Assembly (NCBI GenBank): GCA_000237975.1
Contig: CP003179.1
Coordinates: 62,001 to 126,000, forward strand
Source: Sulfobacillus acidophilus DSM 10332
GTDB taxonomy: Bacteria > Bacillota > Sulfobacillia > Sulfobacillales > Sulfobacillaceae
DNA: 64,000 nt
Direction of reading: 5' to 3'
A model generated the notes under the pieces. The model was not told where the DNA came from. It saw nothing but the letters and a program-made list of their open reading frames with translations, and ran no database searches. A program made the position numbers and the translations under genes. Of this stretch, positions 252-32,621 are shown piece after piece. Each line of letters starts with the position of its first letter. The first letter of the stretch is position 1.

Positions 252-677
252 ATGGATAGGATGACCGCCGAATCACGCAGTCGGGTTATGGCCCGGGTCA
301 AGAACAAAAATACCGCTCCGGAAATACTATTGCGAAAAACCCTCTATGCCGCCGGAGTGCGTGGTTGGCGTTGCCATAAAAGGGATTTGCCGGGAACGCC
401 CGACATCGTGTTTACACGATGGAAGCTCGCGATTTTTGTCGACGGGGCATTTTGGCATGGCCATCCCAGTCATTATCGTCCTGGTCAAAGCGGGACTTTT
501 TGGGACCGAAAGATTGAAAAGAACCGGCGCCGTGACGACGAGGTGAATCGTCTTCTTTCCCGTTTGGGCTATACGGTGATTCGCGTGTGGGATTTTGAAA
601 TCGAAAAAGATCCTGCAGCGGTGGCCCGGAGAATCTCGGAGCGGTTACGGGAATTAAAGGGGACGGTATCCGAATGA
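252..677 (+). CDS. vsr: Vsr-type DNA mismatch endonuclease
   Basis: This 141-residue protein belongs to the very-short-patch repair endonucleases, which nick 5' of the T in T:G mismatches left by deamination of 5-methylcytosine. The family core is clear: an N-terminal RSRVMARVKNKNTAPE segment, LPGTPDIVF with Asp51 (the metal-binding aspartate position of E. coli Vsr) and VDGAFWHGH at residues 63-71. The length is normal for the family. The start at 252 has GAGG seven bases upstream. The stop overlaps the start of the cytosine methyltransferase by ATGA, so the pair is co-translated, as expected of a methylase with its repair partner. The cysteines that bind the structural zinc in E. coli Vsr are not present: Ala66, Ser73 and no Cys near residue 117. 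The fold may therefore be stabilised differently. Confidence 0.9.
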   Translation: MDRMTAESRSRVMARVKNKNTAPEILLRKTLYAAGVRGWRCHKRDLPGTPDIVFTRWKLAIFVDGAFWHGHPSHYRPGQSGTFWDRKIEKNRRRDDEVNRLLSRLGYTVIRVWDFEIEKDPAAVARRISERLRELKGTVSE

Positions 678-1789
678 ACGGACTCGGGAACCGAAAAAAG
701 CGGTATCGCTCCGAGGATTTGGTGGCCGTTGACCTTTTTGCGGGAGGCGGAGGCCTGACGCTCGGTTTGAAATTGGCCGGGTTTCGTGTTTTGGGCGCGG
801 TCGAAATTGATGATTTGGCGGCAGAAACGTACCGGATGAATCACCCCGAGGTTGACATCGAACAACAAGACATCCGCCTATTGGATGCGGAGGAATTTCG
901 TCGGACGTTGGGTCTCCGGAAAGGCCGGCTGGATCTCTTGGCGGGATGTCCTCCGTGTCAGGGGTTTTCCGCCTTGACGACCAAAAACGGGGCCAAGACG
1001 ATTGACGACCCGAGAAACTCCCTGGTACGCGAGTTCGTGCGATTTACCGACGAATTTAAGCCGAAAGTTATTATGCTGGAAAACGTGCCGGGGTTGGCGA
1101 ACGACCCGGGATTTCATGACGTCCTTCGGGAATTGGAGTCGTTGGGTTATACGGTGGAATTCCGCATATTGAATTCGGCAAAATTCGGGGTTCCCCAGAG
1201 AAGACGGCGATTGATTCTTTTAGCCGGATTATATGGCCCCGTACCGTTTGCGGAGGCGGCGGAGACACCGGAAATCACGGTTCGAGAAACTATCGGCATG
1301 TTGCCGGAACCCGGCGACAGCGGGGATCCTCTTCACGATTTGCCCGAAAAGCGGAGCGAACGGGTCCGGCGCATTATCCAAACGATCCCGTTGGATGGCG
1401 GCAGTCGTGCGGAGTTGCCGGAAGACCTGACCTTGGACTGTCACCGTCGCGGAAACGGGTTTAAGGACGTTTACGGACGAATGGCCTGGGATGCGGTGGC
1501 CCCGACGATTACGGGCGGTTGCGTGAATCCGAGCAAGGGCCGGTTCCTTCACCCGTCTCAACACCGAACCATTACGCTACGGGAAGCGGCGCTTTTACAG
1601 GGGTTTCCGCGCGATTACCGGTTTAGTCTCCGAAAGGGGAAATACGCCGCCGCGGTGGTCATCGGGAACGCGCTGCCTCCTGAATTTATCCGTCGGCATG
1701 CCGTTAAGGTAAAGCATTACATTCGTCGCCGATACCTACGAAAGACAACGGAATCGGGGAAGACTCCTCAAAATCTCCATATGACGTAA
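674..1789 (+). CDS. C5-cytosine DNA methyltransferase (Dcm family)
   Basis: This 371-residue enzyme transfers a methyl group from S-adenosylmethionine to carbon 5 of cytosine in a DNA target. All main motifs are visible in order: motif I FAGGGGLTLGL (residues 22-32), motif IV PPCQGFS with the catalytic Cys95, motif VI ENVPGL, motif VIII QRRRRL, motif IX ITLREAALLQGFP and motif X GNALPPEF. The target-recognition region between VIII and IX is short, about 90 residues, so the recognition site cannot be read off. It is translationally coupled to vsr through ATGA. No dedicated restriction endonuclease lies beside it. It may be a Dcm-like maintenance methylase, or it may mark self DNA for the helicase-nuclease encoded next, by analogy with the cytosine methylase DrmMII of class 2 DISARM. 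Confidence 0.93.
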   Translation: MNGLGNRKKRYRSEDLVAVDLFAGGGGLTLGLKLAGFRVLGAVEIDDLAAETYRMNHPEVDIEQQDIRLLDAEEFRRTLGLRKGRLDLLAGCPPCQGFSALTTKNGAKTIDDPRNSLVREFVRFTDEFKPKVIMLENVPGLANDPGFHDVLRELESLGYTVEFRILNSAKFGVPQRRRRLILLAGLYGPVPFAEAAETPEITVRETIGMLPEPGDSGDPLHDLPEKRSERVRRIIQTIPLDGGSRAELPEDLTLDCHRRGNGFKDVYGRMAWDAVAPTITGGCVNPSKGRFLHPSQHRTITLREAALLQGFPRDYRFSLRKGKYAAAVVIGNALPPEFIRRHAVKVKHYIRRRYLRKTTESGKTPQNLHMT

Positions 1790-1889
1790 CCTGCGCCAAC
1801 GGTAAACGCGGGACGGTGAATGGATACCGAGGTACCTAATAAAAAGTCCGAAAAGAGAGACGAATTTGCTCCGGAAGGGGGGCTCCCAA

Positions 1890-4800
1890 TTGACACCGGA
1901 AGAAATTAAAGAAAGGCTTTTGGCCGGACTTACCGAGGATCAGAAAGTTGCCGTGCAGTCTCCCAAACGACGTTTGTTGATCGTCGCGGGAGCGGGTGCC
2001 GGAAAAACCGAGGTTATGGCTCGGCGTATCGTCTGGTGGATTACCATGAACGACGTACCGAAGGAACGGACCGTCGCCCTGACGTTTACGGAAAAGGCCG
2101 CGGGAGAGATGAAATTCCGGATCAGGGAAAAACTGAAAACGATTGCCGATCCGGGTGACGACGTGAGTTTGGGGGGGATGTACGTCGGTACGATTCACGG
2201 TTATTGTCTGGCTAAACTGCGAGAATATTGGCCCGATATCTATCATAATTACGACATTCTGGACGAAGCGGCCCGTAGCGCGCTGATTTTTCGGGAGTTT
2301 CGCGGGGTTTTACGGCTGGATAAATTACAGGAGGCGTTAAACACCAGCCAAAACGAGACCGTCAAGCGTTTTATGACCGGATACGACCAACTGAACGAAC
2401 ATAACCTGCTGGATGTCGCCCTTCCCGATACCGTACCGCCTTATCGGTTAGGCGACGACGAGAGGGCGTGGTGTGCCGAAGCTCGTCTAAGGACCGACGT
2501 CGGCGACGATGCCGTATCACGGGCGTTTGCCGAGTCCGCGGCACGATATTACGCGTACTTGCGTTGTCGACGGTTTCTCGATTTCAGTACCTCCCAGACC
2601 GAATTTTTAAGAAATATGGCGAGGGACCCGGATCCCCCGCACCGATTGTCCGAAGAACCTCTTCATGTGGTGGTCGACGAGGCGCAAGACCTTAATCCGG
2701 TTCAACAAGACATCGTCGAACGGTTAATCGGCTCTATCGGATCCCTGACGGTCGTCGGGGATCATCGACAATCCATTTACGGCTTTCGGGGGGCAAAAGT
2801 CCAAATCATTGCCGATCTTTGGGCGACGTTTCGGCGGGCCGACGACGGGGAAACCATAGACTTGCGGGAGAATTTTCGTTCCACGCCGCGCATCATCGGC
2901 ATTGCCAACGAATGGGCCCGAACCATCTCGCCCTTGGGTTCGATGATTACGCCCGATATGCGGCACGGGAAGGAAGACCGGATCGATATCGATCCGTCGC
3001 ACGTGGCGTCCGTACGGTTTACCACACGGGAAGAGGAAGCCCGATGGATAGCCGACGCCATTCGAGCCCTGGTTCCGTCGGATCGGTTCGGGGCGGAGCA
3101 CGATAAGCGGAACGGGAAGACGCGCGGGCTTAGCCTGTCCGACATCGGCATCCTGGTGCGATCGGCGACCGATGTACGCACCTATATGAACGCCCTGGAA
3201 AATCGCGGCATCCCGGTCGTCGTTCGCGCAGGGCCGGATTTGTTTTCGCAACCGGAAGTGTTGTTTTTTTTAGGGCTTTTGGCCATTACGGCAAACATCG
3301 CCGAATTTTACGGGTCTTTACATAATCCTCGGTCGTTGCCGGCACGCATCCAAAACGTGCTTGGTTGCCCTCCGCGACCTGACGAGGTCATCCGGGCTTC
3401 CGCCGACATGCTACGGAAAGCGGGCCTGCCGTTGTCGCACGAGGCCGAACGACGGGTCTTACGAGCCGCCGAGGCCGTTCGCGACAAGATCACATCGGGT
3501 TCGGCCGGGGCCGGCGACTTTCGTGACGAGGGGCTTCAAAGGTATTTGCGGGATTCGGGAAAACCGCGGCGGGTATTTCCTCAAACCATCTATCACTGGT
3601 TATTGACGGAAGCGGAGATTGACCGGTGGGACACCGGTTTTCCTCGAGGGGAGACCGCTTTGTTCCATTTGGGGGCGTTAAGCGGCCTCGTGACCGGGTT
3701 GGAGACGCCGGGCTGGACCAGTGCCACGGATTACAAGTGGCAAATTGTCGGATTGGGCCAATTCGGGTCCGAGGAAGGCCGGAGTCCCGAACAGCCGTTA
3801 CTGGTGCCGCCCGACGCCGTCACGCTGAGTACCATACATGGCGTCAAGGGACTCGAATTCGCCGCGGTTTTTTTGGCCGACGTGACCGCCGGGCGGTTTC
3901 CGAGCTCGCTGGCCAAAAGGAAGGCGGAGTTACCGATGTCCGGAGACATTCTGCGACAAATCGACGCCGACGGATTATCGGATAACGACAACCACGACGG
4001 CGAGAGGCGACTCATGTACGTAGCGTTGACTCGGGCCGAACGGTTCCTGTTCGTCTCGCGTTCGGGAAAAAGGACATCGCAATTTATCAAGGATCTGGAG
4101 CCGATTATCCGTCACAACGGGGGAACGGTAACGGACAACCCGACAGAGCTTTTACGTCGGATTCGTCATGCCCCGTTGGAATATCAACGGGACGTCCAGC
4201 TGAACACGTCGTTTTCCGATCTCCGGTATTACCTCGCATGCGCCCATGACTTTTATTTACGGAAGGTACTGGGGTTTTCCCCCACTATCGATCAGGCCTT
4301 CGGATACGGTCGCGGCCTACATAACTTGATGCGGGCAATACATGGTAATCCCCGATATTGGGCGGAATTGGCGACAGACCAAAAGCGCTTGATAAGCGAA
4401 CTGGAAAAATTGGTGGATCAAGGGCTCTTTTACCTTCGGTACACGACTGGAGAACCCGCGGAAAACATGCGCCAAAAAGGGATCAGGTTGGCGGCCGAAT
4501 ATGTGCGCACGTTCCGGTCGGAATTGGAACGGACGGTATTTGAACCCGAAAAGGCGTTCGAAACGGTATTGGATCCGGGCGACGACTCCGGAGGCATCAT
4601 GGTATCCGGGGCCATCGACGTGGTGCGGCACGAGGATCCTCCGCGTGTTACCCTCATCGACTTTAAGTCAGGGGACCCGGATTCCGACAAATATCGGCTG
4701 GACGAGGATGAAATGCGCCTGCAACTCGGCATCTATGCGCTTGGGACCAAAAAGGAGTTGGAATACGAACCGGATTTGGGATTGGTCCGGTATCTCGATG

Positions 4801-5015
4801 TGGACGGAACCGCGGAGCGGCGGCAACTGGAGGTGTCCTTGGATGCCAAATCCCTAAAAACGGCGGAGGATACGGTCCTTGGAATTGCGCGAGCGATCAA
4901 AAATCGGGACTTCCGACGGGGGCCGGCCAAGCCCGCGGCCGACGGTAAGCATCGGTGTCGGACATGCGACTTTTTCGGGTTTTGCGGCATGAAAGTCGGT
5001 GTCGGGGATCGGTGA
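1890..5015 (+). CDS. UvrD-type helicase fused to an AddB/Cas4-like iron-sulfur nuclease
   Basis: This 1041-residue SF1A helicase has Walker A AGAGAGKTEVM (about residue 33), motif II VVDEAQDLNP (about 262), motif III GDHRQSIYGFRGA, motif V STIHGVKGLEF (about 647) and motif VI YVALTRAERF. The C-terminal third is a PD-(D/E)XK nuclease with AIDVV and LIDFKSG (about 908-926). A cysteine in YLACAHDFYL before the nuclease core and the triad CRTCDFFGFC near the C terminus match the four-cysteine iron-sulfur cluster of AddB and Cas4 nucleases. It probably unwinds and degrades linear or unmodified DNA. The TTG at 1890 is preferred because a GGAAGGGGGG ribosome site lies eight bases upstream; another in-frame TTG at 1866 would place that site inside the gene. 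The gene follows the cytosine methylase after 100 bases. Confidence 0.88.
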   Translation: MTPEEIKERLLAGLTEDQKVAVQSPKRRLLIVAGAGAGKTEVMARRIVWWITMNDVPKERTVALTFTEKAAGEMKFRIREKLKTIADPGDDVSLGGMYVGTIHGYCLAKLREYWPDIYHNYDILDEAARSALIFREFRGVLRLDKLQEALNTSQNETVKRFMTGYDQLNEHNLLDVALPDTVPPYRLGDDERAWCAEARLRTDVGDDAVSRAFAESAARYYAYLRCRRFLDFSTSQTEFLRNMARDPDPPHRLSEEPLHVVVDEAQDLNPVQQDIVERLIGSIGSLTVVGDHRQSIYGFRGAKVQIIADLWATFRRADDGETIDLRENFRSTPRIIGIANEWARTISPLGSMITPDMRHGKEDRIDIDPSHVASVRFTTREEEARWIADAIRALVPSDRFGAEHDKRNGKTRGLSLSDIGILVRSATDVRTYMNALENRGIPVVVRAGPDLFSQPEVLFFLGLLAITANIAEFYGSLHNPRSLPARIQNVLGCPPRPDEVIRASADMLRKAGLPLSHEAERRVLRAAEAVRDKITSGSAGAGDFRDEGLQRYLRDSGKPRRVFPQTIYHWLLTEAEIDRWDTGFPRGETALFHLGALSGLVTGLETPGWTSATDYKWQIVGLGQFGSEEGRSPEQPLLVPPDAVTLSTIHGVKGLEFAAVFLADVTAGRFPSSLAKRKAELPMSGDILRQIDADGLSDNDNHDGERRLMYVALTRAERFLFVSRSGKRTSQFIKDLEPIIRHNGGTVTDNPTELLRRIRHAPLEYQRDVQLNTSFSDLRYYLACAHDFYLRKVLGFSPTIDQAFGYGRGLHNLMRAIHGNPRYWAELATDQKRLISELEKLVDQGLFYLRYTTGEPAENMRQKGIRLAAEYVRTFRSELERTVFEPEKAFETVLDPGDDSGGIMVSGAIDVVRHEDPPRVTLIDFKSGDPDSDKYRLDEDEMRLQLGIYALGTKKELEYEPDLGLVRYLDVDGTAERRQLEVSLDAKSLKTAEDTVLGIARAIKNRDFRRGPAKPAADGKHRCRTCDFFGFCGMKVGVGDR

Positions 5016-5035
5016 CGAGAGGGGAGGCCTAGAGA

Positions 5036-5746
5036 ATGCACGATGACGTTATGATCGATATCAAGCCGTTTGGCCAAAAGGCATTTCGAATCGAAAACGC
5101 GTGGGAAATCGCCGAACTTTTCTTTCGGACCGACCCCAGTTCCGCTTATGACGTATCCCGGAAAGGCTACGACGCGTGGATTCTGGCGCACGCTCAGGAT
5201 CCGGATTGGCGGGATATGGTGATACCGGAGGATATCGGCATTATTAACGGGTCCAATATGCATATGCGATCACCTTTGACCGCTTGGCAAGCGATCGCGA
5301 CCGGTGACCGGTTGCCGTGGATCGCCGCTTTGGATCCGGGCTGGTCGACGGAAAACCTTCTCGGAGGGGACTGGCATCGGGCCCGTGACCGGATTTTAGA
5401 CGCCGTTTCTCGAATGATCCGGTATCGACATATCTCCGTCGCCGGTGCCACCAAGATTTTACACATGAAAAGGCCGTACTTGGTGCCGATATTGGATTCT
5501 TATGTGGGCAACGTTCTCGGATCACCCAAACCGAGCAATAAATCCGCGATGCCGGATTGGTCCGCCCGAATGTTGGATAGCCTGCATGAGATTTTGGTTT
5601 CGAATCGGGACGCCTTGACGGCGATTCAACAACGGCTAATGGCTCGCGGCATTTTTCGGACGCCCGTACGGATATTGGACGCCGTTTTGTGGAGCGCGGA
5701 GCCGACTTCGACATTTGGGTACCGCGTTAAACGGCGAGAACTGTAA
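5036..5746 (+). CDS. Uncharacterised 236-residue protein (possibly DUF6308-like)
   Basis: The function is not known. The protein is soluble, with no signal peptide or membrane segment, and appears mostly helical. It has a helical N-terminal part, a central segment RYRHISVAGATKILHMKRP followed by a helix with PILDSYVG, and a basic C terminus ending RVKRREL. The SVAGATK...RP pattern resembles what I remember of DUF6308 proteins, but this cannot be checked here. GAGGGGAGG eight bases upstream fixes the ATG start. The gene begins 20 bases after the helicase-nuclease, so it is the last gene of the first block. A nucleic-acid-binding or accessory role there is only inference. Confidence 0.7.
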   Translation: MHDDVMIDIKPFGQKAFRIENAWEIAELFFRTDPSSAYDVSRKGYDAWILAHAQDPDWRDMVIPEDIGIINGSNMHMRSPLTAWQAIATGDRLPWIAALDPGWSTENLLGGDWHRARDRILDAVSRMIRYRHISVAGATKILHMKRPYLVPILDSYVGNVLGSPKPSNKSAMPDWSARMLDSLHEILVSNRDALTAIQQRLMARGIFRTPVRILDAVLWSAEPTSTFGYRVKRREL

Positions 5747-5835
5747 TCGTCCTGTATGAGCAACAGGGTTTCAAACATCTTCCAAGCTTGAAAGGCTTTG
5801 GGATTGCAGGGATTGACGGCTTTATGTCGAATGTG

Positions 5836-5853
5836 TGTCAATAAGGTTTGACA
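5836..5853 (+). promoter_or_regulatory. Putative operator dyad upstream of the DUF499 operon
   Basis: TGTCAA-TAAGGT-TTGACA is a perfect 6-bp inverted repeat with a 6-base spacer. Together with its upstream flank (TGTGTGTCAA) it recurs at 20196-20213 in front of the other plus-strand operon of the island. The dyad ends 67 bases before the start at 5921. TTGACA could also serve as a -35 element, but no convincing -10 lies at the proper distance. TATGAT (5854-5859) and TATAAC (5866-5871) are nearby. The remaining bases of 5747-5920 hold no gene. Confidence 0.45.
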
Positions 5854-5920
5854 TATGATACACACTATAACGGGATCATTCGAATCCCCATCGTAATGGA
5901 AACGGGTTGGTGACCGGAAA

Positions 5921-8920
5921 ATGGGAATTAAAGTCGGAGCCGTACCTCATGCCTATTTATTAAAAGACACCTTGACGGATGCCGATTTCGCGGCCGATTT
6001 AATGCGTCTCTATCGCAACGAAGCGCCTCCGGTCTACCAGGATCCGACCGTATTTTTAAAGCAAACCTTTCCTACCGAGGGTCTTCGCGACACGTTGAAG
6101 CAAGTGTTCGGTCGCATCGCCCATGTGCCCGGATCCGCTTCGGTCATTCGGCTGGAAACCGCTTTCGGGGGCGGCAAGACGCACGTGATGAGTACCATCT
6201 ACCACGTGGCCCGAGACGGACACCGTCTCCGATCGCTCGTCCGGCCGCTTTTGGACGAGGCCTTGATACCTTCGGCACCGGTCAAAACCGTGGTTTTGGT
6301 GGGGGACAAGTATTCCGGAAACCACTGCATGGAATATGCGGAAGACGGCATCGAAACGCATACGTTATGGGGCGAATTGGCGTACCAGGTCGGGGGCAAA
6401 GAAGCGTGGAACACCTGGAAGGCCTACGACGAGGAGCGGATGCCCCCCAGTGACGCGGTGTTGCACCGTTTGTTGAGCGGGTCTCCGGTCGTGTTGCTGA
6501 TGGACGAATTGCCGGCCTATTTGCGTACCGCCCGGTCGGTCACCGTGGGGCACACGACCCTGGCCGGGGTGACGATTCCGTTTATGCAACGGCTGTTGAC
6601 CCTGGCGGCGAGTTTGCCGAATCTGGTGGTGGTGTACTCGTTGGCTCGGGAAGCGTATGCGGACGAAGCGGAAGAACTGTTACGGGAACTTGACGCGGTG
6701 TCGGCACGGGTCGAGACGGTAATCCGGCCGACCGGGGATACCGAAGTCGCGGCTATCGTCAACCGGCGGTTGTTTGCCTCGGTCGATCCGGCGGCCGCCG
6801 AAAACACCGCGGACCGGTTTATCCGGTACTACCAGTCGTCTCTCGGTAACGACATGCCGTTACCGGCCGAATATGTTACCCCCGCATACCGGGAGGCGCT
6901 GATCCGGTCCTATCCGTTTCATCCGGCCCTGTTGGACGTGCTTGACCGAAAGGTGGCGACCATACCCGATTTCAACAAAACGCGGGGAGCCTTGCGGGTA
7001 TTGGCGGATACGGTTCAAGCCTTATGGGAGGGGGACGACGATCCGGACCTGATTCTTCCCGGAATGGTACCGGTCTCCGACGTCCGGGTTCAGCCCCAGC
7101 TGACCAGCCGTATCAAACGGGAAGTGTTTACTCATGCCCTTCGGGCGGATTTGGCCAACGATCAGGGGGATGCCCACGCCCAACTTCTGGATCGGTCATG
7201 GATCGGCCGCACGGGTCGGCCCCTGGTGTCGCACATGGCCCGGACCGCCTATCTCCATAGTCTGGTGCAAGGGAAGGCGTCCGGAGCGACCCTGACGGAT
7301 CTGCTGATCGGGGCGGGGAGTCCGGGAGTGGACTTGGGCCTTTGTCTGACGGCTTGGGAAGAGTTTATGAACGCGGCCTGGTATGTGGTATCCGACGGTC
7401 GCTTGTTCCGGTTTCAAACCGAGCCCTCGCTCAACAAAGTGATTGCGGACGAAATGACCATGGTTCACAACCAGGATGTTCGGGCGGAACTGGTGGCGAA
7501 GATTCAGCAGGTCTTTCAGGACGGCGCGTTCAAATTGGTGTACAACCCGGACGAGTCCGTCGAATTGGAGGATCGGCCGAGTTTACGGTTGGTGGTGACG
7601 AGTCCGGATGGCCCGCTGTTGGACCTGCGGACGACCGGAATCGAAACGCCGGCGATTCCCGATCGAATTCGCGATCTGTTCGAAAATCATGGCGGGGATT
7701 TACGCAAGTACCGGAACAGCCTGGTATTTTTGCTGGCCGACGAAGGAATGCGGGAGGATCTTTACCGATTGGCCCGTCGTTTACGGGTCATCCGGTCGTT
7801 GGTGGAAGACCCTTTGCGGAAAGAGGCGTTCGCTTCCCAATGGGATCGCCTGATCCAAGAACAGAAATCGGGTCCCCAAGAGCTTTCGCGGGCCATCTAC
7901 CGAACCTATCGCCACCTGTTCTATCCGGACGGCAGCGCGAACGGCCTGGCCTATCGGATAATCGAGCCGCACCAGGACGATTTTCCCAAAGGGAAAGGGC
8001 AACACATGATTGAACGCGCCCTGCGGGAACGGCCGGAAGGTCCGAAATTGCTGGTGGCCGACGACCCGCCCAAAGATCCCGACTGGCTGAAAGAACGGGC
8101 CTGGGACTACGGACGGGACGAGATTACCACCGAGGCCTTGTATCATGCGTTCTTTCGTCGGGGTCAACTGCCTTTTTTGGCGGCGGTCGATCCCTTGAAG
8201 GAATCGATTCGACAGGCCGTGGAAAAACGGCTTTGGGTATACAGAGACGGAGACCGGGTGGTTTACGGGGAATCGGTGAATCCGGTCATCTCAAGTACCG
8301 TATGGCTTTATACGGCGGAACGGGCCAAAAACCTGGGCATCGGGCCATGGCAGCCGGGCACGGACGAATCGGCCGCCATCTTGACGGAACCTGAAAAAGC
8401 CCCGGGACGTCCGGCCGAAACGGGATATTCGGGCGGATCCGCCAAAGAAGCTCGCGTAACCTACGCCAAACCCGTACGGGAATGGAAAACCACCGGTACG
8501 GTAGACGAGGTCATTCGGGATCTGGCGGATGCGGATTTAACGGAGCCGGTCGCCATCGTCCGGTTGGCGGCGGTGCAACTGGCCGCGGTCAACGCCCTGA
8601 CCGAGCTGTCCACCACCGGTATTCGGCTGCCCGTAACGGTTGACGCGAGCTTTTTGATCACGGTGGACGACGAGGAAATTCGGTTAGATTTTAAAGGGTC
8701 CGTCCGACGCTTCCAACGGGTCAAAACCGCTATAGTGCCGTTTGTCTCGGAGGCTATGACGCGAAATCGACCGGATCAAAATCATGTGTCCATGACGCTG
8801 ACATACGACTGGGATGCCGATCAGCCGACTACCGCGCTCGTCGATTGGCTTCGGACCGCGTTAGGAAAGCGGCCCGGCACGTACGAACTGACCGTCGGTT
8901 TCAAGGAAGCCACGGTATGA
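5921..8920 (+). CDS. DUF499-family AAA+ ATPase (anti-phage associated)
   Basis: This is a 999-residue ATPase of the DUF499 family. Walker A is the family's unusual ETAFGGGKTHVM (about residues 79-90) and Walker B is VVLLMDELPAY (about 188-198). An arginine-rich all-alpha part follows, then a C-terminal region with a repeated beta pattern. No nuclease or methylase motif is visible. DUF499 proteins recur next to DUF1156 methyltransferases and helicases in phage-defence loci, which is exactly the neighbourhood here, so it probably powers or gates the methylase/helicase complex encoded downstream. The start at 5921 has only a weak ribosome site. It opens the second block and has the shared dyad 67 bases upstream. 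Its substrate is unknown. Confidence 0.85.
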   Translation: MGIKVGAVPHAYLLKDTLTDADFAADLMRLYRNEAPPVYQDPTVFLKQTFPTEGLRDTLKQVFGRIAHVPGSASVIRLETAFGGGKTHVMSTIYHVARDGHRLRSLVRPLLDEALIPSAPVKTVVLVGDKYSGNHCMEYAEDGIETHTLWGELAYQVGGKEAWNTWKAYDEERMPPSDAVLHRLLSGSPVVLLMDELPAYLRTARSVTVGHTTLAGVTIPFMQRLLTLAASLPNLVVVYSLAREAYADEAEELLRELDAVSARVETVIRPTGDTEVAAIVNRRLFASVDPAAAENTADRFIRYYQSSLGNDMPLPAEYVTPAYREALIRSYPFHPALLDVLDRKVATIPDFNKTRGALRVLADTVQALWEGDDDPDLILPGMVPVSDVRVQPQLTSRIKREVFTHALRADLANDQGDAHAQLLDRSWIGRTGRPLVSHMARTAYLHSLVQGKASGATLTDLLIGAGSPGVDLGLCLTAWEEFMNAAWYVVSDGRLFRFQTEPSLNKVIADEMTMVHNQDVRAELVAKIQQVFQDGAFKLVYNPDESVELEDRPSLRLVVTSPDGPLLDLRTTGIETPAIPDRIRDLFENHGGDLRKYRNSLVFLLADEGMREDLYRLARRLRVIRSLVEDPLRKEAFASQWDRLIQEQKSGPQELSRAIYRTYRHLFYPDGSANGLAYRIIEPHQDDFPKGKGQHMIERALRERPEGPKLLVADDPPKDPDWLKERAWDYGRDEITTEALYHAFFRRGQLPFLAAVDPLKESIRQAVEKRLWVYRDGDRVVYGESVNPVISSTVWLYTAERAKNLGIGPWQPGTDESAAILTEPEKAPGRPAETGYSGGSAKEARVTYAKPVREWKTTGTVDEVIRDLADADLTEPVAIVRLAAVQLAAVNALTELSTTGIRLPVTVDASFLITVDDEEIRLDFKGSVRRFQRVKTAIVPFVSEAMTRNRPDQNHVSMTLTYDWDADQPTTALVDWLRTALGKRPGTYELTVGFKEATV

Positions 8921-8954
8921 GGACATTTCACATCATTGTGGGAGGCTTTTTTCG

Positions 8955-9389
8955 GTGACTGTTCCTAAACCCTATCGGCTGAAGGTTTCCTTGGATCACG
9001 ACAATGCACTAAGGCTGGAACTTTGGCAGGTGGGATATAGCCCTCGGGAAACCGAGCGAACGCCGCTTAAGGTCGGCACGTTGCGCGGAGTTCCGTTGAC
9101 CGTGTCCCATACCGGATTGGTCGAACTCCTGCAAAAAGAGGGATACGGACCGGGATGGTTGACGAGACCGCAACCCGAACCGGCCGAGTTGACGGAAAAC
9201 ACCGGGATATTGTTGGCCCTATGGTTTCGGTTGGTACAACCAGTCAAAAAGATCGAGCGGATTCAAAACATTATTCAGGGATTAGCCCGGATGACCCCGG
9301 ACGAACGGCAATATTTTTTTGCCCGTATCCGCTATCCCGGCAAAGGCCGCTACATGGAACGGGCACTAAGACTCTGGTTGGGCGAATGA
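8955..9389 (+). CDS. Uncharacterised 144-residue protein of the DUF499/DUF1156 block
   Basis: I do not recognise a family. The protein is small and soluble. Its N-terminal half looks beta-rich (PYRLKVSLDHDNALRLELWQ) and its C-terminal half helical and basic (IQNIIQGLARMTPDERQYFFARI). The GTG start at 8955 has GGAGG about ten bases upstream. It sits 34 bases after the DUF499 gene and 34 before the methyltransferase gene, so it is almost certainly co-transcribed with them. A small adaptor between the ATPase and the methylase is a reasonable guess. No catalytic motif supports an enzymatic role. Confidence 0.75.
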   Translation: MTVPKPYRLKVSLDHDNALRLELWQVGYSPRETERTPLKVGTLRGVPLTVSHTGLVELLQKEGYGPGWLTRPQPEPAELTENTGILLALWFRLVQPVKKIERIQNIIQGLARMTPDERQYFFARIRYPGKGRYMERALRLWLGE

Positions 9390-9423
9390 ACAGGAAAACG
9401 CAAACGAAAGAAGGGTTTTCGCT

Positions 9424-12195: not shown

Positions 12196-12198
12196 CCC

Positions 12199-15285: not shown

Positions 15286-15296
15286 TCAGCTCCCTG

Positions 15297-20039: not shown

Positions 20040-20081
20040 AATCGGTTCCTCCAAACATGTATTAAATAAATAATTAGATTT

Positions 20082-25549: not shown

Positions 25550-27744
25550 AAGAACAAAGCAATAATCGTCCGAAGCTGCGAGCGAATATTTTGGCCGTAG
25601 CGGCCGAATCGGTCGATATTCAAACGAAGTCTGAGAGTAAGGGAATGGACTACCGTTCCGAACAAGACATCGCGTCCCATCTTTGGTATTGGGATCTGTT
25701 AGAGTTGACGCGCATTTGGCCCATGCGGTTTCCCCGGGAGTGGGCGCGTGAGGGTTATTTGACCGAACGACAAAAAGCGGAAAAAGATGCCTTTATCCGC
25801 CCAGCCAGTGAACATATCATAAGCCTATGGCAGAACATCCCGAAAGTTTTTCAGCCTATGCCGATAACCCACGATGCTCCTTGGTTTAGCCAAACGCAAA
25901 AGCCGGTTAGCTCTTCTCCGCTTTCGTCGCTATTCCCGGAGGTTCCGTCGGTTCCGGAAAGCTCATCTATCGAAAATGCGTCGTTACATGCTGCGGAAAA
26001 CGTGTCGGAAATACTGCGGGCACCGGCCGACGCTCGAATTTTAGTTACGGCTCCTCCAGGCACCGGTAAAACCTACTTGATGCTGGATCGGTTAGAATCA
26101 TTGATCGAACAACCGGATATAGGCGATCCGCACCGAGATGTACTTGTCTTGAGTTTCACGAGAGCTACCGTGTCCGAAATCGTCCGTCGACTGCAAGACC
26201 GAATTACCCACGGGGCGTCTGACAATTTACGTTACGTGAATGTGTCCACTTTTGATTCTTTGGTGTCCCGGCTTTTGGTTTTGGACATTGAGCCGGATAA
26301 ATTGCCCTTGGGCTATAACCAACGTATCCGTTACTTTCTCGAATTATTGGAAGCCCAAAAGATTCCTCGGGCCTTACAGGAATTGACGGCGGTTCGCACC
26401 CTATTCGTGGACGAGCTTCAGGATCTTTCGGGAGTTCGAGCCGACTTGGTCTTAAGCTTGGCGCGTCTAGTGCTTGATCATGGGGGAGGATTATTTTTCT
26501 CGGGTGACCCGGCTCAATCCATTTATGACTTTGATCGAGAGGGAGGGTTAACCGGGCACCAATTTATTCGCCGATTGATAAAGCTTGTCGGTTCCGATCT
26601 GATTACCTGGCGTCTCAAAACGTATTATCGATTTCATAATCCGGCCTTGGAAAAATTAGCCAAGGAGTTGCGTGAATCGTTCGGTGAAGACGGATTACAG
26701 GCGCCCTCCATCGAAGTTTTGCCGAACCTTCGAGAGAACGCCCCTCGACGCACTTTCGGTTGGCTAATCGAGGAATCCCGAAAACGCCGCATTGCTATCT
26801 TGGTTCACAATAATTTGGAAGTTTTTCAATTGGCTCAATGGCTTCGGGAACAAGACGTCCGCGTCGACTTGAAGTCCCGGATGACTGTCTGGCCGGCTTG
26901 GATGGCGCGCTTAGTATGGGGTATTTCGGGTGAACATGTTAGCGAAGCACATTTGAAAAAACTCTGGTTTCAACGGGTGGCTGATCGAGCAACCGAATCA
27001 TGGGGTGACGCGCTTGAATTGTTGCGGCAATCCGGAACCTTCCAGCGAGGCCATTTGGTTCTAAATCGGTTGGGCGAATTGGTTCGAGAACATGTTCCAC
27101 CCCTGCCTTCTCAAGAAGCCGGCGTGTTTATCACCACGATTCATCAATCCAAAGGACTGGAATATGATACGGTGGCTATTCTCGAACCGACCGGTAAAAA
27201 TCTTTCCGGAGATCCTGAAGAAGTGCGGAAAATGTATGTCGCCGCGACGCGCGCCCGGCATGACTTAGTGTTACTTGAGCGGAACTCGGAAGTTCTAGGC
27301 TTTGGTCGAAAAGATATCTATCGACATTTTCACCGGTTTCACAAGGACAACGAATTTCTTTTACACGGGTTGGAAGATATTTCGGTGCAAAACTTGTGGC
27401 AATGTCCCAATTATATGACACGCCTGGCATGGGAGCAGCTAATCAAGTCGGAACAGGAACGATGGTGGGAAGAAGGGGGAATGAACCGGACCCTCTCGTT
27501 GCCTTGGTCGCTTAACGGGGGTGTCGGTAGTCCATCTCTTATAGAATTAGACCATTCGGTTCAGGAGGATTTAAAAGAACTGGTTAATAAACATTCCTTG
27601 CCTCGACAGGGACTCATGGAACTGCCGGTGAGGGATTTGGTGACCGTGGCTCGGCCACATTCCGGGGACGTAGGCGGTACGGCCGGATTATTCCTGGTGC
27701 CTTGGGTTTTCGGATGGAGCCGGGTCCTGTTACGGGAGGGATAG
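25546..27744 (+). CDS. UvrD/Rep-type helicase of the DrmA/DrmB operon
   Basis: This 732-residue SF1A helicase has an N-terminal extension of about 160 residues with many aromatic residues. Walker A APPGTGKTY lies at about 168, motif II FVDELQDLSG at about 286, motif III SGDPAQSIYDF follows, then motif V TTIHQSKGLE at about 530 and motif VI YVAATRARHD at about 563. Unlike the helicase at 1890-5015 it carries no recognisable PD-(D/E)XK domain or cysteine cluster; the last 130 residues are unassigned. It is coupled to the Hsp70 gene by ATGA and ends one base before the DrmA start. It probably supplies 3'-to-5' translocation to the DrmA/DrmB complex. A separate SF1 helicase is not part of classical DISARM. 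Confidence 0.87.
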   Translation: MKEQSNNRPKLRANILAVAAESVDIQTKSESKGMDYRSEQDIASHLWYWDLLELTRIWPMRFPREWAREGYLTERQKAEKDAFIRPASEHIISLWQNIPKVFQPMPITHDAPWFSQTQKPVSSSPLSSLFPEVPSVPESSSIENASLHAAENVSEILRAPADARILVTAPPGTGKTYLMLDRLESLIEQPDIGDPHRDVLVLSFTRATVSEIVRRLQDRITHGASDNLRYVNVSTFDSLVSRLLVLDIEPDKLPLGYNQRIRYFLELLEAQKIPRALQELTAVRTLFVDELQDLSGVRADLVLSLARLVLDHGGGLFFSGDPAQSIYDFDREGGLTGHQFIRRLIKLVGSDLITWRLKTYYRFHNPALEKLAKELRESFGEDGLQAPSIEVLPNLRENAPRRTFGWLIEESRKRRIAILVHNNLEVFQLAQWLREQDVRVDLKSRMTVWPAWMARLVWGISGEHVSEAHLKKLWFQRVADRATESWGDALELLRQSGTFQRGHLVLNRLGELVREHVPPLPSQEAGVFITTIHQSKGLEYDTVAILEPTGKNLSGDPEEVRKMYVAATRARHDLVLLERNSEVLGFGRKDIYRHFHRFHKDNEFLLHGLEDISVQNLWQCPNYMTRLAWEQLIKSEQERWWEEGGMNRTLSLPWSLNGGVGSPSLIELDHSVQEDLKELVNKHSLPRQGLMELPVRDLVTVARPHSGDVGGTAGLFLVPWVFGWSRVLLREG

Positions 27745-27745
27745 C

Positions 27746-30700
27746 ATGGGCGATTCTACGTTGTATGTTGAAGCACGCCAAATGTTGGTGGAAGCATTGA
27801 AAAGACACTTAATTGGACCAAGCGAAGCCGAAGAAATTATCGATGAACATCCCCGGGAACATTATCATTACGGCTATTTAATTGCTCAAGAAGATAAAGC
27901 TTTGGTGGAAGAAGATATCCGCGATGAAGATCTGGTGGATACCGACAATGATGAGCTGGGGGAGGACGAGGTTCTCCCGATCAATAAGACCCGAAACGTT
28001 CGGACGATAGGGATAACATTTCAGTTGGTACCGGAATCGGATATCTCGATTCAGGTAGAATGGGCAAGATATTTTATGGTTCACCGTGAGGGTCGAACGG
28101 AACCGTCTTGGCAACGGGAGCCGTTCACTTTTACATTCGACGTGCCGGTGGGGCACCGATTCGATCAACAAGAATTTAATCACGGCGGAATGGCGGTTCG
28201 CGTGTTAACGCGTCCTCTGGATGATTGGGTCGCAACAACCGTTTCCGTTATTAATCGGGGGCAAAAGAAAGACAATACGAGTGACCACCAATCGGATGAC
28301 ACGGCTTACCAAGTAAAATTAACCGTGATAGACAGTAAACGACAGGGGATATTTACACCTCGCATCCACCGGGCAGCGAAACACGATAACGAGTTTTGGC
28401 GGGATGAAATTCGATTTCGAAAGATTCGTAGCTACGCGATTGGCCATGGTTGTGCGGTGGACTGGGAAGACGACGGGTTAGGTGTTTATAAAATTTATAC
28501 GGAATGGTTGCCAACAGTTGAAGTGCGGCGGGCATCATCCAAGGTCCTGGAATCGGAACCCGCTTTATCGATGAAGCGTTTGGGCGACTTGTCTTTGCAA
28601 TCCGACAATATGCAGGGATTGATGCGCATAGCCCAAGCATACCGGCATTGGATTGACGATTTACATACCACGGTGGGTGATATCGTCGATCAGTTTCCGA
28701 AAGCCAGGGATCAGGTTCAAACGGCGGCCAAGGAAATACTTCAAGAGAATCGGGAAGTTTACCAACGATTTGTCGCCGGGATAGATTTTTTGGGCCGTGA
28801 TTCGGTGGCAATGAAGGCCTTTAGTCTGGCAAACCGAGCTATGGCGCTTTCTATGCAGCAACGGGATCCCCTAAAAGAGCCACGATGGCGAGCTTTCCAA
28901 TTAGTGTTTATGGTGATGACCTTACCCTCCGCCGTGGACCGTTCGCATCCCGAGCGAAATTTATTCGACTTGATATGGTTTCCCACCGGTGGCGGAAAAA
29001 CCGAGGCGTATTTGGGACTGGCCGCTACGGTAATCTTTTATCGGCGACTAAATGGTCAACATGGGGTTGCGGTACTAACGCGATATACGCTGAGATTATT
29101 AACCGTGCAACAGTTTGAGCGTGCTAGCCGAATGATATGCGCGGCCGAATTGGTCCGGCGCGAAGAGCCAGATTTACGACAGGGGCCCCCGATATTGGGT
29201 GGACTTTTTGTGGGAGGACAATTAACACCGAATAACCTTGAGGATGCCCGGACGTTATTAGCCGCAACCGATGCGGAAGGCACGACCACAACCCTTCCTT
29301 TGGTACGATGTCCTTGGTGTGGATCGCCATTAGATACGACTTTTCAGTCGGCAGACAAATATCTCAGGACCCGTTGCCCCGATACGTCTTGTTCCTTTTC
29401 TGAGGAAATTCCGATACGGGTCGTTGACGTCGATATTTATTCACAACTGCCGGATATGGTCGTGGCGACCATTGACAAATTTGCACGGATGCCGTGGGAA
29501 CCGCGGATGGCCGCTTTATTCGAAGCGGGCCCCGATTTAATTATTCAAGATGAACTTCACTTAATTGGAGACGCCCTGGGTTCCATCGCGGCTTTGTACG
29601 AAGCGGTGGTTGACGGATTGTGCTTGAATAAGGGCTTTTTACCCAAAATTATCGGGTCTACCGCGACCACTCGACGAACGGGCAGTCAGGTAGACATCCT
29701 GTTTAATCGTAAGTTAAGGCAATTTCCGGCTGGTGGTTTGGATATGGGAGATGCCTTTTTTTACCGGGAAGATGACGGAAATCCCGGACGGCTCTATGTG
29801 GGCATTCATGCGATAGGTCGTTCAATGCCACATACTCTCGAAAGGACAGCCGGTTTGTTATTACACCAGGTTACAAAAATTGAAAATGATGCGGTTCGGG
29901 ACCAATATTGGACCTTGGCCGTATATTTTAAGGCGTTACGGGAATTAGGCGGGGCTTTGGTTTTGATGCAAGATAGCGTGCCCCGGTATATGGAATCTTT
30001 GGCGAAACCCGCGGAACCGGTCCGAATGATTCAGGTTGAAGAATTAACCAGTCATGTTCCGTCACGGACCATTCCGGAAATTTTATCCCGGTTATCGCAG
30101 CCGATCGTGGAGTTACAAGATGAGGAACAATTGGAGCGTGGGGCGCCGGTCGATGTAGTTTTAGCGACGAATATGATCTCGGTGGGGATTGATATCGATC
30201 GACTCGGTATGATGATTGTCGACGGTCAGCCGTCTTCCGTTTCGGAATATATTCAAGCTACGAGCCGGGTCGGTAGGAGAAGCGAAGCGGCCGGAGTGGT
30301 GGTCACAATATTTAACTGGGCGCGCCCACGGGATCGGTCCATCTATGAACAATTTCGGGTGTTTCACCAAGCAATGTATCGTTTTGTCGAGCCGACCAGT
30401 CTAACCCCGTTTTCCCTTCGGGCTCGAGAACGGGCGTTACATGCGGTGCTGTTTGCGTTAGCCCGGTTAAGTATTCCTGAGCTCCAACCGTATGATTCGC
30501 CTTATCGTGTGCTGGAACCGTCCGTCCATCAAGCCGTTATCCGATTAATCGACCGAATTGTCGACCGCGTTAACGACGTCGATCCGGAAGAAAGCGAATC
30601 GACCAGGCGACAACTAGAAGAGATACTCGAAAAGTGGAGATTCATCGCTCGTGAGTATGGAGCCCTCAAATGGACCAAGACCGCGTATTCTATAAATCCG

Positions 30701-30850
30701 GCTTTACTATATCCCGTCGAGGAGGGGATTAACGACGTCATCGGGTGGGTCACTATGCAGTCGATGCGGGATGTATCCCCGCCGGCGCGGGTAAGGATTC
30801 TCAAGCATCAGGAGCTTCAACGGGGAGGGGAAGTAAATGGCCTCCGCTAA
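27746..30850 (+). CDS. drmA: DISARM helicase DrmA
   Basis: This 1034-residue SF2 helicase of the DISARM core has Walker A FPTGGGKTEAY (about residues 411-421), motif II QDELHLIG (about 600) with the family's DELH instead of DEAH, GSTATTRR as motif III, and C-terminal helicase motifs ATNMISVGIDID (about 807) and QATSRVGRRS (about 836). Between motifs I and II sits an insert with a four-cysteine knuckle, CPWC...CPDTSC (about 520-550). DrmA and DrmB form a complex that loads on DNA ends and discriminates unmethylated invading DNA. The ATG has a GGGAGGG site and follows the previous stop by one base. The DrmB gene overlaps its end by 14 bases, the usual drmA-drmB order. Confidence 0.92.
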   Translation: MGDSTLYVEARQMLVEALKRHLIGPSEAEEIIDEHPREHYHYGYLIAQEDKALVEEDIRDEDLVDTDNDELGEDEVLPINKTRNVRTIGITFQLVPESDISIQVEWARYFMVHREGRTEPSWQREPFTFTFDVPVGHRFDQQEFNHGGMAVRVLTRPLDDWVATTVSVINRGQKKDNTSDHQSDDTAYQVKLTVIDSKRQGIFTPRIHRAAKHDNEFWRDEIRFRKIRSYAIGHGCAVDWEDDGLGVYKIYTEWLPTVEVRRASSKVLESEPALSMKRLGDLSLQSDNMQGLMRIAQAYRHWIDDLHTTVGDIVDQFPKARDQVQTAAKEILQENREVYQRFVAGIDFLGRDSVAMKAFSLANRAMALSMQQRDPLKEPRWRAFQLVFMVMTLPSAVDRSHPERNLFDLIWFPTGGGKTEAYLGLAATVIFYRRLNGQHGVAVLTRYTLRLLTVQQFERASRMICAAELVRREEPDLRQGPPILGGLFVGGQLTPNNLEDARTLLAATDAEGTTTTLPLVRCPWCGSPLDTTFQSADKYLRTRCPDTSCSFSEEIPIRVVDVDIYSQLPDMVVATIDKFARMPWEPRMAALFEAGPDLIIQDELHLIGDALGSIAALYEAVVDGLCLNKGFLPKIIGSTATTRRTGSQVDILFNRKLRQFPAGGLDMGDAFFYREDDGNPGRLYVGIHAIGRSMPHTLERTAGLLLHQVTKIENDAVRDQYWTLAVYFKALRELGGALVLMQDSVPRYMESLAKPAEPVRMIQVEELTSHVPSRTIPEILSRLSQPIVELQDEEQLERGAPVDVVLATNMISVGIDIDRLGMMIVDGQPSSVSEYIQATSRVGRRSEAAGVVVTIFNWARPRDRSIYEQFRVFHQAMYRFVEPTSLTPFSLRARERALHAVLFALARLSIPELQPYDSPYRVLEPSVHQAVIRLIDRIVDRVNDVDPEESESTRRQLEEILEKWRFIAREYGALKWTKTAYSINPALLYPVEEGINDVIGWVTMQSMRDVSPPARVRILKHQELQRGGEVNGLR

Positions 30851-32621
30851 ACATACGAGTCAAATACCCAGTCATCAATTGGTGGGGTATCACGGGGTCG
30901 GATCCATTTACGAATTACGTACCCATTGGAAAGAGAAACAAGCCACATTACATTCCGTTATGGTGGCGGGATTAGATTATTGGAACACGGACGCACTTCA
31001 AGAGCTCCATGATCCCGTTTTGGAGAGCATTTTAGGGGTTCGGAAATTTTATATGCCGTCATTGCCCGATGATGAGAAGTATTCCAAGTCGGCTATACCG
31101 GTTGTTCGATTTCCTCGGTGGCTGGTATGTAACCGTTGCCATCGATTAGGAAAAGTCCCCCAAGAATTTAACGATATCGGTTTTTCGGGCCCTGTATGTA
31201 ATGCCGCGGGTTGTAAAGGACACGGGGTTCCGGTGCGTTTGGTGGTGGCATGTCGTGCAGGCCATATTGATGATTTTCCCTGGGCTTATTGGGCCCATGG
31301 AGGCAAGGATTCTTGTAATAATCCGGCGCTACGTTTGACGGTCCAGCCGGGTACCACATCCTTAGGGGGCTTGATGGTATCATGCCTAAACCCCGATTGT
31401 ACCGATTATAAAAAAGAATATTCTTTAGGACGGGCTCTACACCAGCGCTTTCTTTGTACCGGAAATCGGCCGTGGTTAAATGATCGTGAGGGGTGCACCG
31501 AGAAGGGGCATGCTCTCTTTCGACATTCCAGTACCATCTATTTTCCCGACGTTGTCTCTGCCGTATCGATTCCGCCGTATTCGCAAGAACTTTACCAACG
31601 ACTCCAAAAGGTTGCGGCACGTGATATTAGTCGGATTCAGTCGGCCCACAAACGCGGACGGGATATCGATTGGGAAGAAATTTTGGATTCCCTGCGTGAC
31701 GACATACGGTGGCTGGCCAACTATACCGACGATCAGATTATTCATGCATTGCAATCATTGGCTTTCATTAACGAAAACCGGTTAGAGGATCATATGGCCA
31801 ACGAACGGCTCGCCCTCTTAAACGGGTATCCCGAAATCGATCGTTCGGTGTTTGTGGCTACTCCGGTTCCTTCAGAGGCATTGACGCCGAACATGGCACG
31901 CCTCTTTCAATCATTGGTTGGTGTGGACCGATTGCGGGTGGTACAAGTCTTAAATGGGTTTAGTCGTATAACTCATTATGGGGTTAGGGCCGCCTTATCC
32001 AAAAACGACTTCGATTGGAAGCCGGCCGTCGAATTACATGGTGAAGGGATATACCTCGAATTTAACCGCGATTCGTTATTGAAATGGGCAGCACAGAGTA
32101 ATGTCCGTGCCCGCGTGAAGCCCTTGGCGGACTTGGCGGGCGACCATCAGCAGGAGAAGGCGCATCCTGTATCCATATTCCTTCATACCCTCGCGCATCT
32201 ATTAATTAAACAGTTAAGCTTGGATTCCGGTTACGGCATGGGGGCTCTTCGAGAGAGGCTTTATGTCAACCCCCGGGAAGATACATGGATGGCCGGAATT
32301 CTCATATATGTGGCGGCCACCACCGCAACAGGGACGTTAGGAGGATTGGTGCGTCAGGCGAATCCAGCTCGGCTGGAGGAGCTATTATATTCGATATACG
32401 AGGAGGCTCAGTGGTGCTCGTCCGATCCGCTGTGTCTCGAAACAGATAAACCGGTTGACGACGTGCTCAATCTGGCGGCTTGCCACGCGTGCTGTTTGAT
32501 ATCGGAGACTTCATGCGATTGGCGCAATCAATTTTTAGATAGGGCATTGGTGGTGGGATTACCCGGAGAGGAATCGTTAGGCTTTTTAAGCGGGATGCTC
32601 GGAGAGCAAACCATTAAATAG
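30837..32621 (+). CDS. drmB: DISARM protein DrmB (DUF1998)
   Basis: This 594-residue protein is the second part of the DISARM core and the helicase partner of DrmA. The N-terminal half contains cysteine knuckles, CNRC (about residue 100), CNAAGC and CRAGHIDDFPW. The C-terminal DUF1998 domain is marked by LHTLAHLLIKQLSLDSGYG and the closing cluster ACHACCLISETSC...N..LDRAL. Length and motif order match DrmB. GGGGAGGGG lies just upstream of the ATG, inside drmA, and the frames overlap by 14 bases. It is the last gene of the operon. No separate drmC (PLD) gene follows; the only PLD domain of the island is fused to the SNF2 helicase at 12199-15285. Confidence 0.92.
   Translation: MASAKHTSQIPSHQLVGYHGVGSIYELRTHWKEKQATLHSVMVAGLDYWNTDALQELHDPVLESILGVRKFYMPSLPDDEKYSKSAIPVVRFPRWLVCNRCHRLGKVPQEFNDIGFSGPVCNAAGCKGHGVPVRLVVACRAGHIDDFPWAYWAHGGKDSCNNPALRLTVQPGTTSLGGLMVSCLNPDCTDYKKEYSLGRALHQRFLCTGNRPWLNDREGCTEKGHALFRHSSTIYFPDVVSAVSIPPYSQELYQRLQKVAARDISRIQSAHKRGRDIDWEEILDSLRDDIRWLANYTDDQIIHALQSLAFINENRLEDHMANERLALLNGYPEIDRSVFVATPVPSEALTPNMARLFQSLVGVDRLRVVQVLNGFSRITHYGVRAALSKNDFDWKPAVELHGEGIYLEFNRDSLLKWAAQSNVRARVKPLADLAGDHQQEKAHPVSIFLHTLAHLLIKQLSLDSGYGMGALRERLYVNPREDTWMAGILIYVAATTATGTLGGLVRQANPARLEELLYSIYEEAQWCSSDPLCLETDKPVDDVLNLAACHACCLISETSCDWRNQFLDRALVVGLPGEESLGFLSGMLGEQTIK

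What the first reader, a model, noticed from the sequence alone, without database searches (positions are those of the whole stretch)
252..32621. A 32-kb DISARM-related superlocus with an embedded Hsp70 chaperone module
DrmA and DrmB are clear, and a DNA methylase, a SNF2 helicase and a PLD domain are all present, so the DISARM parts list is met. The locus also holds a DUF499 ATPase, two different UvrD-type helicases, a lid-less Hsp70, a coiled-coil protein, an 886-residue unknown protein, a sacsin-ATPase/helicase fusion and a Vsr/cytosine-methylase pair. Eight or more NTPases in one island is far beyond textbook DISARM. I cannot tell whether this exact arrangement has been named.
Basis: partly seen in the sequence, partly recalled or inferred. 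Interest (0 to 1): 0.88.

Follow-up and report, generated by a model that had tools for sequence, protein, structure and literature searches.

The report
Hsp70-linked DrmAB helicase defence operon
Inside a large bacterial defence island sits a six-gene operon that couples a lid-less Hsp70 chaperone and a coiled-coil protein to the DNA-helicase core of the DISARM anti-phage system; the same gene order recurs in unrelated bacteria, so it looks like a real but uncharacterised defence machine rather than a chance pile-up.

Summary
All the described genes are there, but the 32 kb is not one DISARM superlocus. It is at least four blocks: (A) Vsr/C5-methylase/UvrD-PD(D/E)xK nuclease; (B) a BREX-related "BR"/Hma-type set (DUF499, DUF7680, DUF1156 methylase, PLD-SNF2); (C) a low-GC, reversed sacsin-ATPase/SF1 helicase; (D) a tightly overlapping six-gene operon, 20282-32621: U886, coiled coil, Hsp70, UvrD, DrmA, DrmB. 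A Zorya-I system lies just left of the window.

Block D is the finding. The order coiled coil-Hsp70-UvrD-DrmA-DrmB recurs in other Sulfobacillus-family genera and at 22-35% identity in Clostridia, Synergistota, Melainabacteria and a viral contig. Hsp70, UvrD and DrmA trees agree for the shared distant loci. In both lineages genes 1-2 evolve fast and Hsp70 slowly. DrmA-based sampling finds Hsp70 beside 5 of 6 DrmAs of this kind and beside 0 of 47 others. DISARM's methylase, PLD and SNF2 genes are missing from D, so it is not DISARM.

Best reading: a DrmAB/UvrD DNA-motor defence system gated by an Hsp70/coiled-coil switch and a variable sensor. The module is well supported; antiphage function is inferred; the gating mechanism is a hypothesis. 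I found no published description in the literature held. New variant of a known kind.

The parts
20282..22942 (+). U886: fast-evolving protein of unknown fold, first gene of the six-gene operon; proposed sensor/specificity subunit
   Evidence: No family match. Homologues only in the same family, 27-31% identity, always at this place. AF2 model failed (pLDDT 47).
22939..24105 (+). CC388: N-terminal helical part plus coiled coil; proposed Hsp70 adaptor or co-chaperone
   Evidence: 4-bp overlap with U886; coiled-coil matches only. A 350-450 aa coiled-coil-type gene is always directly upstream of Hsp70 in relatives.
24092..25549 (+). Hsp70L: Hsp70 ATPase domain plus beta substrate-binding domain, no lid
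   Evidence: Pfam 5e-18; model pLDDT 88, aligned to DnaK/BiP over residues 1-478; 58-64% identity in family relatives.
25546..27744 (+). UvrD732: SF1 (UvrD/GajB-like) helicase
   Evidence: Pfam 1e-19; Walker A APPGTGKT, DELQ, YVAATR. Conserved between Hsp70 and DrmA.
27746..30850 (+). DrmA: YprA-type SF2 helicase, N-terminal half of the split DrmAB helicase
   Evidence: PADLOC 2e-195; NCBIfam DISARM_DrmAS 833 bits, below the cut-off of 950; Serratia DrmA structure 7s9v 9e-121.
30837..32621 (+). DrmB: DUF1998/MZB zinc-binding partner of DrmA
   Evidence: NCBIfam DrmB_fam 401 bits against cut-off 240; 7s9v chain B 1e-62.
15297..20054 (-). Neighbour, separate block C: sacsin ATPase fused to SF1 helicase (TmtA/MkoA-like)
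   Evidence: opposite strand, GC 0.436 against 0.57 and 0.50 on either side.
5921..8920 (+). Neighbour block B: DUF499 ATPase (HmaC-like)
8955..9389 (+). Neighbour block B: DUF7680 protein, at the position of a small accessory gene
   Evidence: PF24728 2e-36.
9424..12195 (+). Neighbour block B: DUF1156 adenine methylase (HmaB-like), DPPY motif
12199..15285 (+). Neighbour block B: N-terminal PLD (HKD) nuclease fused to SNF2 helicase
   Evidence: HPKVGIIRD...GSLN.
252..677 (+). Neighbour block A: Vsr endonuclease
   Evidence: PF03852 6e-25.
674..1789 (+). Neighbour block A: C5 cytosine methylase
   Evidence: PF00145 5e-60.
1866..5015 (+). Neighbour block A: UvrD helicase with RecB-like PD-(D/E)xK nuclease
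   Evidence: LIDFK motif.
5036..5746 (+). Neighbour block A: DUF6308 protein
   Evidence: PF19827 4e-10.

Best explanation
Window 20282-32621 is a self-contained defence operon, a DrmAB-type system with an Hsp70 switch. DrmA and DrmB form the split YprA-family helicase. From the solved Serratia DrmAB it is inferred that they load on 5'-ssDNA ends of invading DNA. UvrD732 is a second, SF1 DNA motor of the same complex. Hsp70L (ATPase plus peptide-binding beta domain, no lid) and the coiled-coil protein CC388 would act as an ATP-driven switch or assembly clamp that holds the helicases inactive, or assembles them, according to what the fast-evolving first protein (U886) senses. DNA destruction would come from a NERD-helicase encoded next in many relatives or, in Sulfobacillus, from the nucleases of the BREX-type system next door. 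SHOWN: gene order, coevolution of the core, folds, motifs, rate profile. INFERRED: antiphage role (family and island context). HYPOTHESIS: Hsp70 gating, U886 sensing, borrowed nuclease. Confidence: module about 0.9, defence about 0.85, this gating mechanism about 0.35.
For: Genes overlap by 4-14 bp or abut, and GC is even (0.47-0.51). All six genes keep their order in S. benefaciens; the G025 contigs split inside gene 1 and a 4.3-kb contig of G009 keeps genes 1-3. A search by Hsp70 brought in ten distant loci (Synergistota, Melainabacteria, several Clostridia) in which UvrD-DrmA (and DrmB where the contig allows) follow Hsp70 in the same order at 22-35% identity. Searches by DrmA independently brought in G1580/L175 and a viral contig, L186, with CC-Hsp70-UvrD-DrmA-DrmB-NERD helicase. 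Of DrmA-found loci, Hsp70 lies beside 5 of 6 of this DrmA kind and 0 of 47 others (related sequences, so the p-value is only a guide). DrmA, UvrD and Hsp70 trees show matching branching for the shared distant loci. In two separate lineages genes 1-2 diverge most (30/26% and 33/42% identity) and Hsp70 least (59% and 74%). Hsp70L has both NBD and SBD-beta. Defence context: Zorya I, BR and RM genes adjacent here, BREX type-3-like set 18 bp upstream of U886 in S. benefaciens, DUF1156-DUF499 upstream in G025.
Against: No phage experiment was possible. One locus of this DrmA clade (G1556/L173) has UvrD-DrmA-DrmB without Hsp70, and ten loci of a sister group carry UvrD-DrmAB without it, so Hsp70 is not needed by every UvrD-DrmAB unit. 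Gene 1 of the distant clade is not detectably homologous to U886, and the coiled-coil proteins match only weakly. The Hsp70-linked DrmAs are weakly rejected as one clade (AU p 0.033), and Sulfobacillus Hsp70L sits on a long branch: the link may have arisen twice. There is no direct evidence for Hsp70-helicase contact.
Confidence: 0.6

Rival explanations
1. The whole 252-32621 stretch is one integrated superlocus: the BR set (DUF499/DUF1156/PLD-SNF2) supplies the methylase and nuclease for the DrmAB-Hsp70 operon, making a DISARM-like composite.
For: In all three family members with readable upstream DNA the operon stands behind a BREX or BREX-related set: DUF499 set here, BREX type-3-like with 18-bp spacing in S. 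benefaciens, DUF1156-DUF499 in G025. Sulfobacillus operons lack the NERD nuclease-helicase found in distant relatives. X-coiled coil-Hsp70 cassettes elsewhere also follow DUF1156-DUF499 (L032, L090), BREX (L033) and type III RM (L034).
Against: A reversed, low-GC gene separates the two here. The upstream set differs between relatives. Distant relatives with the operon mostly have no such set. BR sets function as separate systems in the literature (PMC12839542).
Confidence: 0.15
2. The island is a pile-up of independent defence genes with no functional unit beyond textbook systems.
For: True for the blocks taken together: different GC, orientation and neighbours, and unrelated systems such as Zorya adjoin.
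Against: Fails for 20282-32621, whose order is conserved across phyla and was recovered independently by DrmA and by Hsp70 searches.
Confidence: 0.1
3. Hsp70L is only a dedicated folding chaperone for the large helicases, not a switch in the defence reaction.
For: It has a substrate-binding domain and is the most conserved gene, with little sign of an arms race.
Against: UvrD-DrmAB units on plasmids do without it. It always comes with a fast-evolving coiled-coil partner and lacks the lid; ordinary DnaK is available for folding.
Confidence: 0.2
4. Hsp70L is an actin/ParM-like filament ATPase rather than an Hsp70.
For: Pfam MreB_Mbl scores close to HSP70 (1e-17 against 5e-18).
Against: The model has a beta substrate-binding domain after the ATPase domain and aligns with two-domain DnaK/BiP over residues 1-478 at Z 35-38.
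Confidence: 0.03

Closest known systems
DISARM (DrmAB core, Serratia structure 7s9v)
   Same: DrmA and DrmB homologous and adjacent; acidic loop region at the place of the DrmA trigger loop present, but shorter (by reading the alignment)
   Different: No DrmMI/DrmMII, DrmC or DrmD in the operon; adds UvrD, Hsp70, coiled coil, U886; DrmA below the NCBIfam DISARM cut-off
ARMADA / Druantia (YprA-family systems, PMC12458937)
   Same: YprA-family helicase; ARMADA II also has a GajB-like UvrD helicase
   Different: Here the helicase is split (DrmA + DrmB); no BrxHII/PglX pair in the operon; Hsp70 is not mentioned in that paper
CoCoNuT systems and Hsp70-McrB fusions (PMC11090510)
   Same: Hsp70 NBD/SBD units with coiled coils and SF1 helicases in a defence operon
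   Different: McrBC GTPase-based and predicted to target RNA; no DrmAB; here Hsp70 is a separate protein
BREX-related Type-2 BR / Hma systems (PMC12839542)
   Same: Block B: DUF499 ATPase, DUF1156 methylase, N-terminal HKD nuclease-SNF2 helicase
   Different: DUF7680 where Type-2 BR has DUF3780; far below the NCBIfam equivalog cut-offs
Plasmid UvrD-DrmA-DrmB(-NERD helicase) loci
   Same: UvrD-DrmA-DrmB order (L017-L020, L022)
   Different: No Hsp70 or coiled-coil genes

Membership tests
DISARM | DrmA helicase at the family's curated score | tested here: not met
   NF038325 833 bits, cut-off 950; clear homologue by PADLOC
DISARM | DrmB (DUF1998) protein | tested here: met
   NF038324 401 bits, cut-off 240
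DISARM | DrmMI or DrmMII methylase in the operon | tested here: not met
   None in 20282-32621; the island's C5 methylase is 18 kb away and fits DruM/type II models better (1e-85) than DrmMII (3e-45)
DISARM | DrmC PLD protein (or DrmD SNF2 in class 1) in the operon | tested here: not met
   Only a PLD-SNF2 fusion of block B, best to PbeA/PLD_Helicase/phospholipD_antiphage models and below the DrmD cut-off (249 of 610 bits)
[quoted passage not shown]
   DrmA and DrmB are separate genes; no such pair in the operon
Type-2 BR / Hma (block B) | DUF499 ATPase, DUF1156 N6-methylase, N-terminal HKD-SNF2 helicase | tested here: met
Type-2 BR / Hma (block B) | Standalone DUF3780 gene (98% of Type-2 per PMC12839542) | tested here: not met
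   DUF7680 in that position; no DUF3780 match
Hsp70 | NBD plus SBD-beta; SBD-alpha lid in full-length members | tested here: met
   NBD + SBD-beta in the model; the lid is absent
CoCoNuT | McrB-type GTPase | tested here: not met
   No McrB match in the six genes
Antiphage defence system | Measured protection from phage | not testable with these tools
   Needs a bench assay

The most novel reading that the evidence does not exclude
Bacteria use lid-less Hsp70 plus coiled-coil cassettes as a general, portable switch for DNA-targeting immunity: they have been attached several times to DrmAB, and to BREX, DUF499 and restriction-modification systems, to license helicase/nuclease action according to protein-level signs of infection.
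Probability: 0.25. Interest if true: 0.88.

Novelty: new variant of a known kind. Interest (0 to 1): 0.68.

Why it matters
It would add a chaperone ATPase to the DrmAB/YprA branch of prokaryotic immunity and name a conserved operon that standard defence annotation only partly sees (U886 and the coiled coil unmatched, Hsp70 read as an ordinary chaperone or actin-like protein, DrmA under the cut-off). If the Hsp70 senses proteins, the system would combine protein-level sensing with DNA destruction. The recurrence of the same Hsp70/coiled-coil pair beside BREX, DUF499 and RM loci makes 'what does Hsp70 do in immunity?' directly testable.

Tried and rejected
Plasmid and viral searches with U886 gave nothing. 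The AF2 model of U886 from three sequences was unusable (pLDDT 47), so no fold is claimed. U886 against gene 1 of distant loci by profile comparison: no homology. The coiled-coil proteins of the two lineages: only a weak coiled-coil match, so equivalence rests on position, size and rate. A guess that CC388 is GrpE-like was not supported by Pfam. The idea that Hsp70 replaces the DrmA trigger loop was dropped: an acidic loop, shorter than in Serratia, is still there. A first one-clade test on UvrD was void because it placed L173 outside the group. Literature searches for DrmA/DrmB+Hsp70, Hsp70+UvrD+antiphage, DUF1998+Hsp70 and BREX+Hsp70 found only the CoCoNuT papers as relevant; subscription journals are not in that library.
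Full report
WHERE IT IS. The window is G000:C1:62001-126000 of a 3.56-Mb, two-contig genome. The closest named relative carrying the operon is Sulfobacillus benefaciens AMDSBA4, in the same family.

THE OBSERVATION. Catalytic motifs are intact. GC, strand and spacing divide the stretch. Block A (252-5746) and block B (5921-15285) have GC about 0.53-0.59. Block C (15297-20054) is reversed with GC 0.436. Block D (20282-32621) has GC 0.47-0.51, and its genes overlap by 4-14 bp or abut within 1 bp. A transposase gene (32977-34671) lies close behind DrmB. Immediately left of the window is a Zorya type I set: ZorD 1092 bits, ZorB 2e-82, ZorA 5e-35, ZorC 1e-15. This is a layered defence island.

BLOCK B IS A KNOWN KIND. 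DUF499 + DUF1156 methylase + N-terminal HKD nuclease fused to an SNF2 helicase is the architecture called Hma, or Type-2 BREX-related (BR), in PMC12839542. The small gene at the place of DUF3780 is DUF7680, and scores are far below NCBIfam equivalog cut-offs, so it is a divergent member. The 'methylase, SNF2 and PLD' that seemed to complete DISARM belong here.

BLOCK D IS A CONSERVED UNIT. In the family, U886-CC-Hsp70-UvrD-DrmA-DrmB is intact in S. benefaciens. In G025 it is split over two contigs inside gene 1, and the first three genes are visible on a 4.3-kb contig of G009. A genome-wide Hsp70 scan returned ten distant loci in which UvrD, DrmA and (where the contig allows) DrmB follow Hsp70 in order, at 22-35% identity to the window: Synergistota, Melainabacteria, Clostridia, Eubacterium, Ruminococcus and others. 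Each has a 350-450 aa gene directly before Hsp70. DrmA-found loci of the high-scoring kind have Hsp70 in 5 of 6 informative cases (window, G021, G025, L175, L186; not L173). None of 47 other DrmA loci has it. Sequences are related, so the Fisher p of 2e-6 is only a guide. Ten of the 47 have UvrD-DrmAB without Hsp70.

TREES. DrmA, UvrD and Hsp70 trees show matching branching for the shared distant loci, as expected if the operon moves as a unit. Sulfobacillus forms a second, separate group. One clade of Hsp70-linked DrmA is weakly rejected (AU p 0.033), and Sulfobacillus Hsp70L sits on a long branch. Two origins are possible; orthology of the two versions is unproven. In both lineages the rate order is the same: genes 1-2 fast, Hsp70 slowest.

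HSP70L. An AF2 model from 14 sequences has pLDDT 88 and pTM 0.89. It aligns with two-domain DnaK/BiP over residues 1-478 at Z 35-38 with no helical lid. U886 could not be modelled.

WIDER PATTERN. Related Hsp70s, again preceded by two genes of about 340-440 aa, stand behind DUF1156-DUF499 (L032, L090), a BREX set with PglZ, BrxL and GmrSD (L033) and type III RM-like genes (L034). A coiled coil-Hsp70-UvrD start stands behind a Type ISP RM gene (L041). In one DrmA sub-group a C5 methylase and/or Vsr lies next to the operon (L047, L082, L175, L186, L037), which leaves open that block A serves block D.

MECHANISM. Solved DrmAB is autoinhibited by a trigger loop and loads on 5' ssDNA overhangs (PMC9142583). 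The profile of Hsp70-linked DrmAs aligns along most of that protein, with a shorter acidic stretch at the loop. I infer that DrmAB plus UvrD are DNA motors. I propose that Hsp70L/CC388 form the ATP switch and U886 the variable sensor. These last steps are hypothesis.

MEMBERSHIP. It is not DISARM (methylase, PLD and SNF2 absent from the operon; DrmA below the curated cut-off), not ARMADA and not CoCoNuT. It works like a DrmAB-type system. No description of an Hsp70-DrmAB system was found in the papers held.

Noticed in passing
G000:C1:54408-60953 (L014:2408-8953), just left of the window: Complete Zorya type I system (ZorA, ZorB, ZorC, ZorD) adjoining the island.
   Followed up: partly
L186 (IMG/VR contig 3300029305_008688): A contig classed as viral carries CC-Hsp70-UvrD-DrmA-DrmB-NERD helicase-C5 methylase-Vsr, so the operon may travel on mobile elements.
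   Followed up: partly
L032, L090, L033, L034, L041, L025, L030: Hsp70 preceded by small accessory genes sits beside DUF1156-DUF499, BREX, type III RM, Type ISP RM and EVE-AAA genes: a possible portable accessory cassette.
   Followed up: partly
L049:9992-16664: Desulfomonile: Hsp70, then a UvrD fragment, then a 1616-aa fused YprA-type helicase with MZB domain (ARMADA/Druantia-like), suggesting Hsp70 also partners fused YprA helicases.
   Followed up: no
window 8955-9389: DUF7680 gene inside a DUF499/DUF1156 set where Type-2 BR systems have DUF3780.
   Followed up: no
window 15297-20054: Low-GC, reversed sacsin-ATPase/SF1 helicase (TmtA/MkoA-like) lying between blocks B and D, probably a later insertion.
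   Followed up: no
L008:1-10129 (S. benefaciens): BREX type-3-like set (PglXI, BrxHI, PglZ, BrxA) ends 18 bp before U886.
   Followed up: yes
window 674-5015 and L125: C5 methylase plus UvrD-PD(D/E)xK protein are also neighbours in L125, beside a DrmAB locus: a possible linked pair.
   Followed up: no
window 36645-39935: SWIM/SNF2_assoc SNF2 helicase right of the island, with high scores to DpdE/ZorD models; may be an ordinary chromosomal gene.
   Followed up: no
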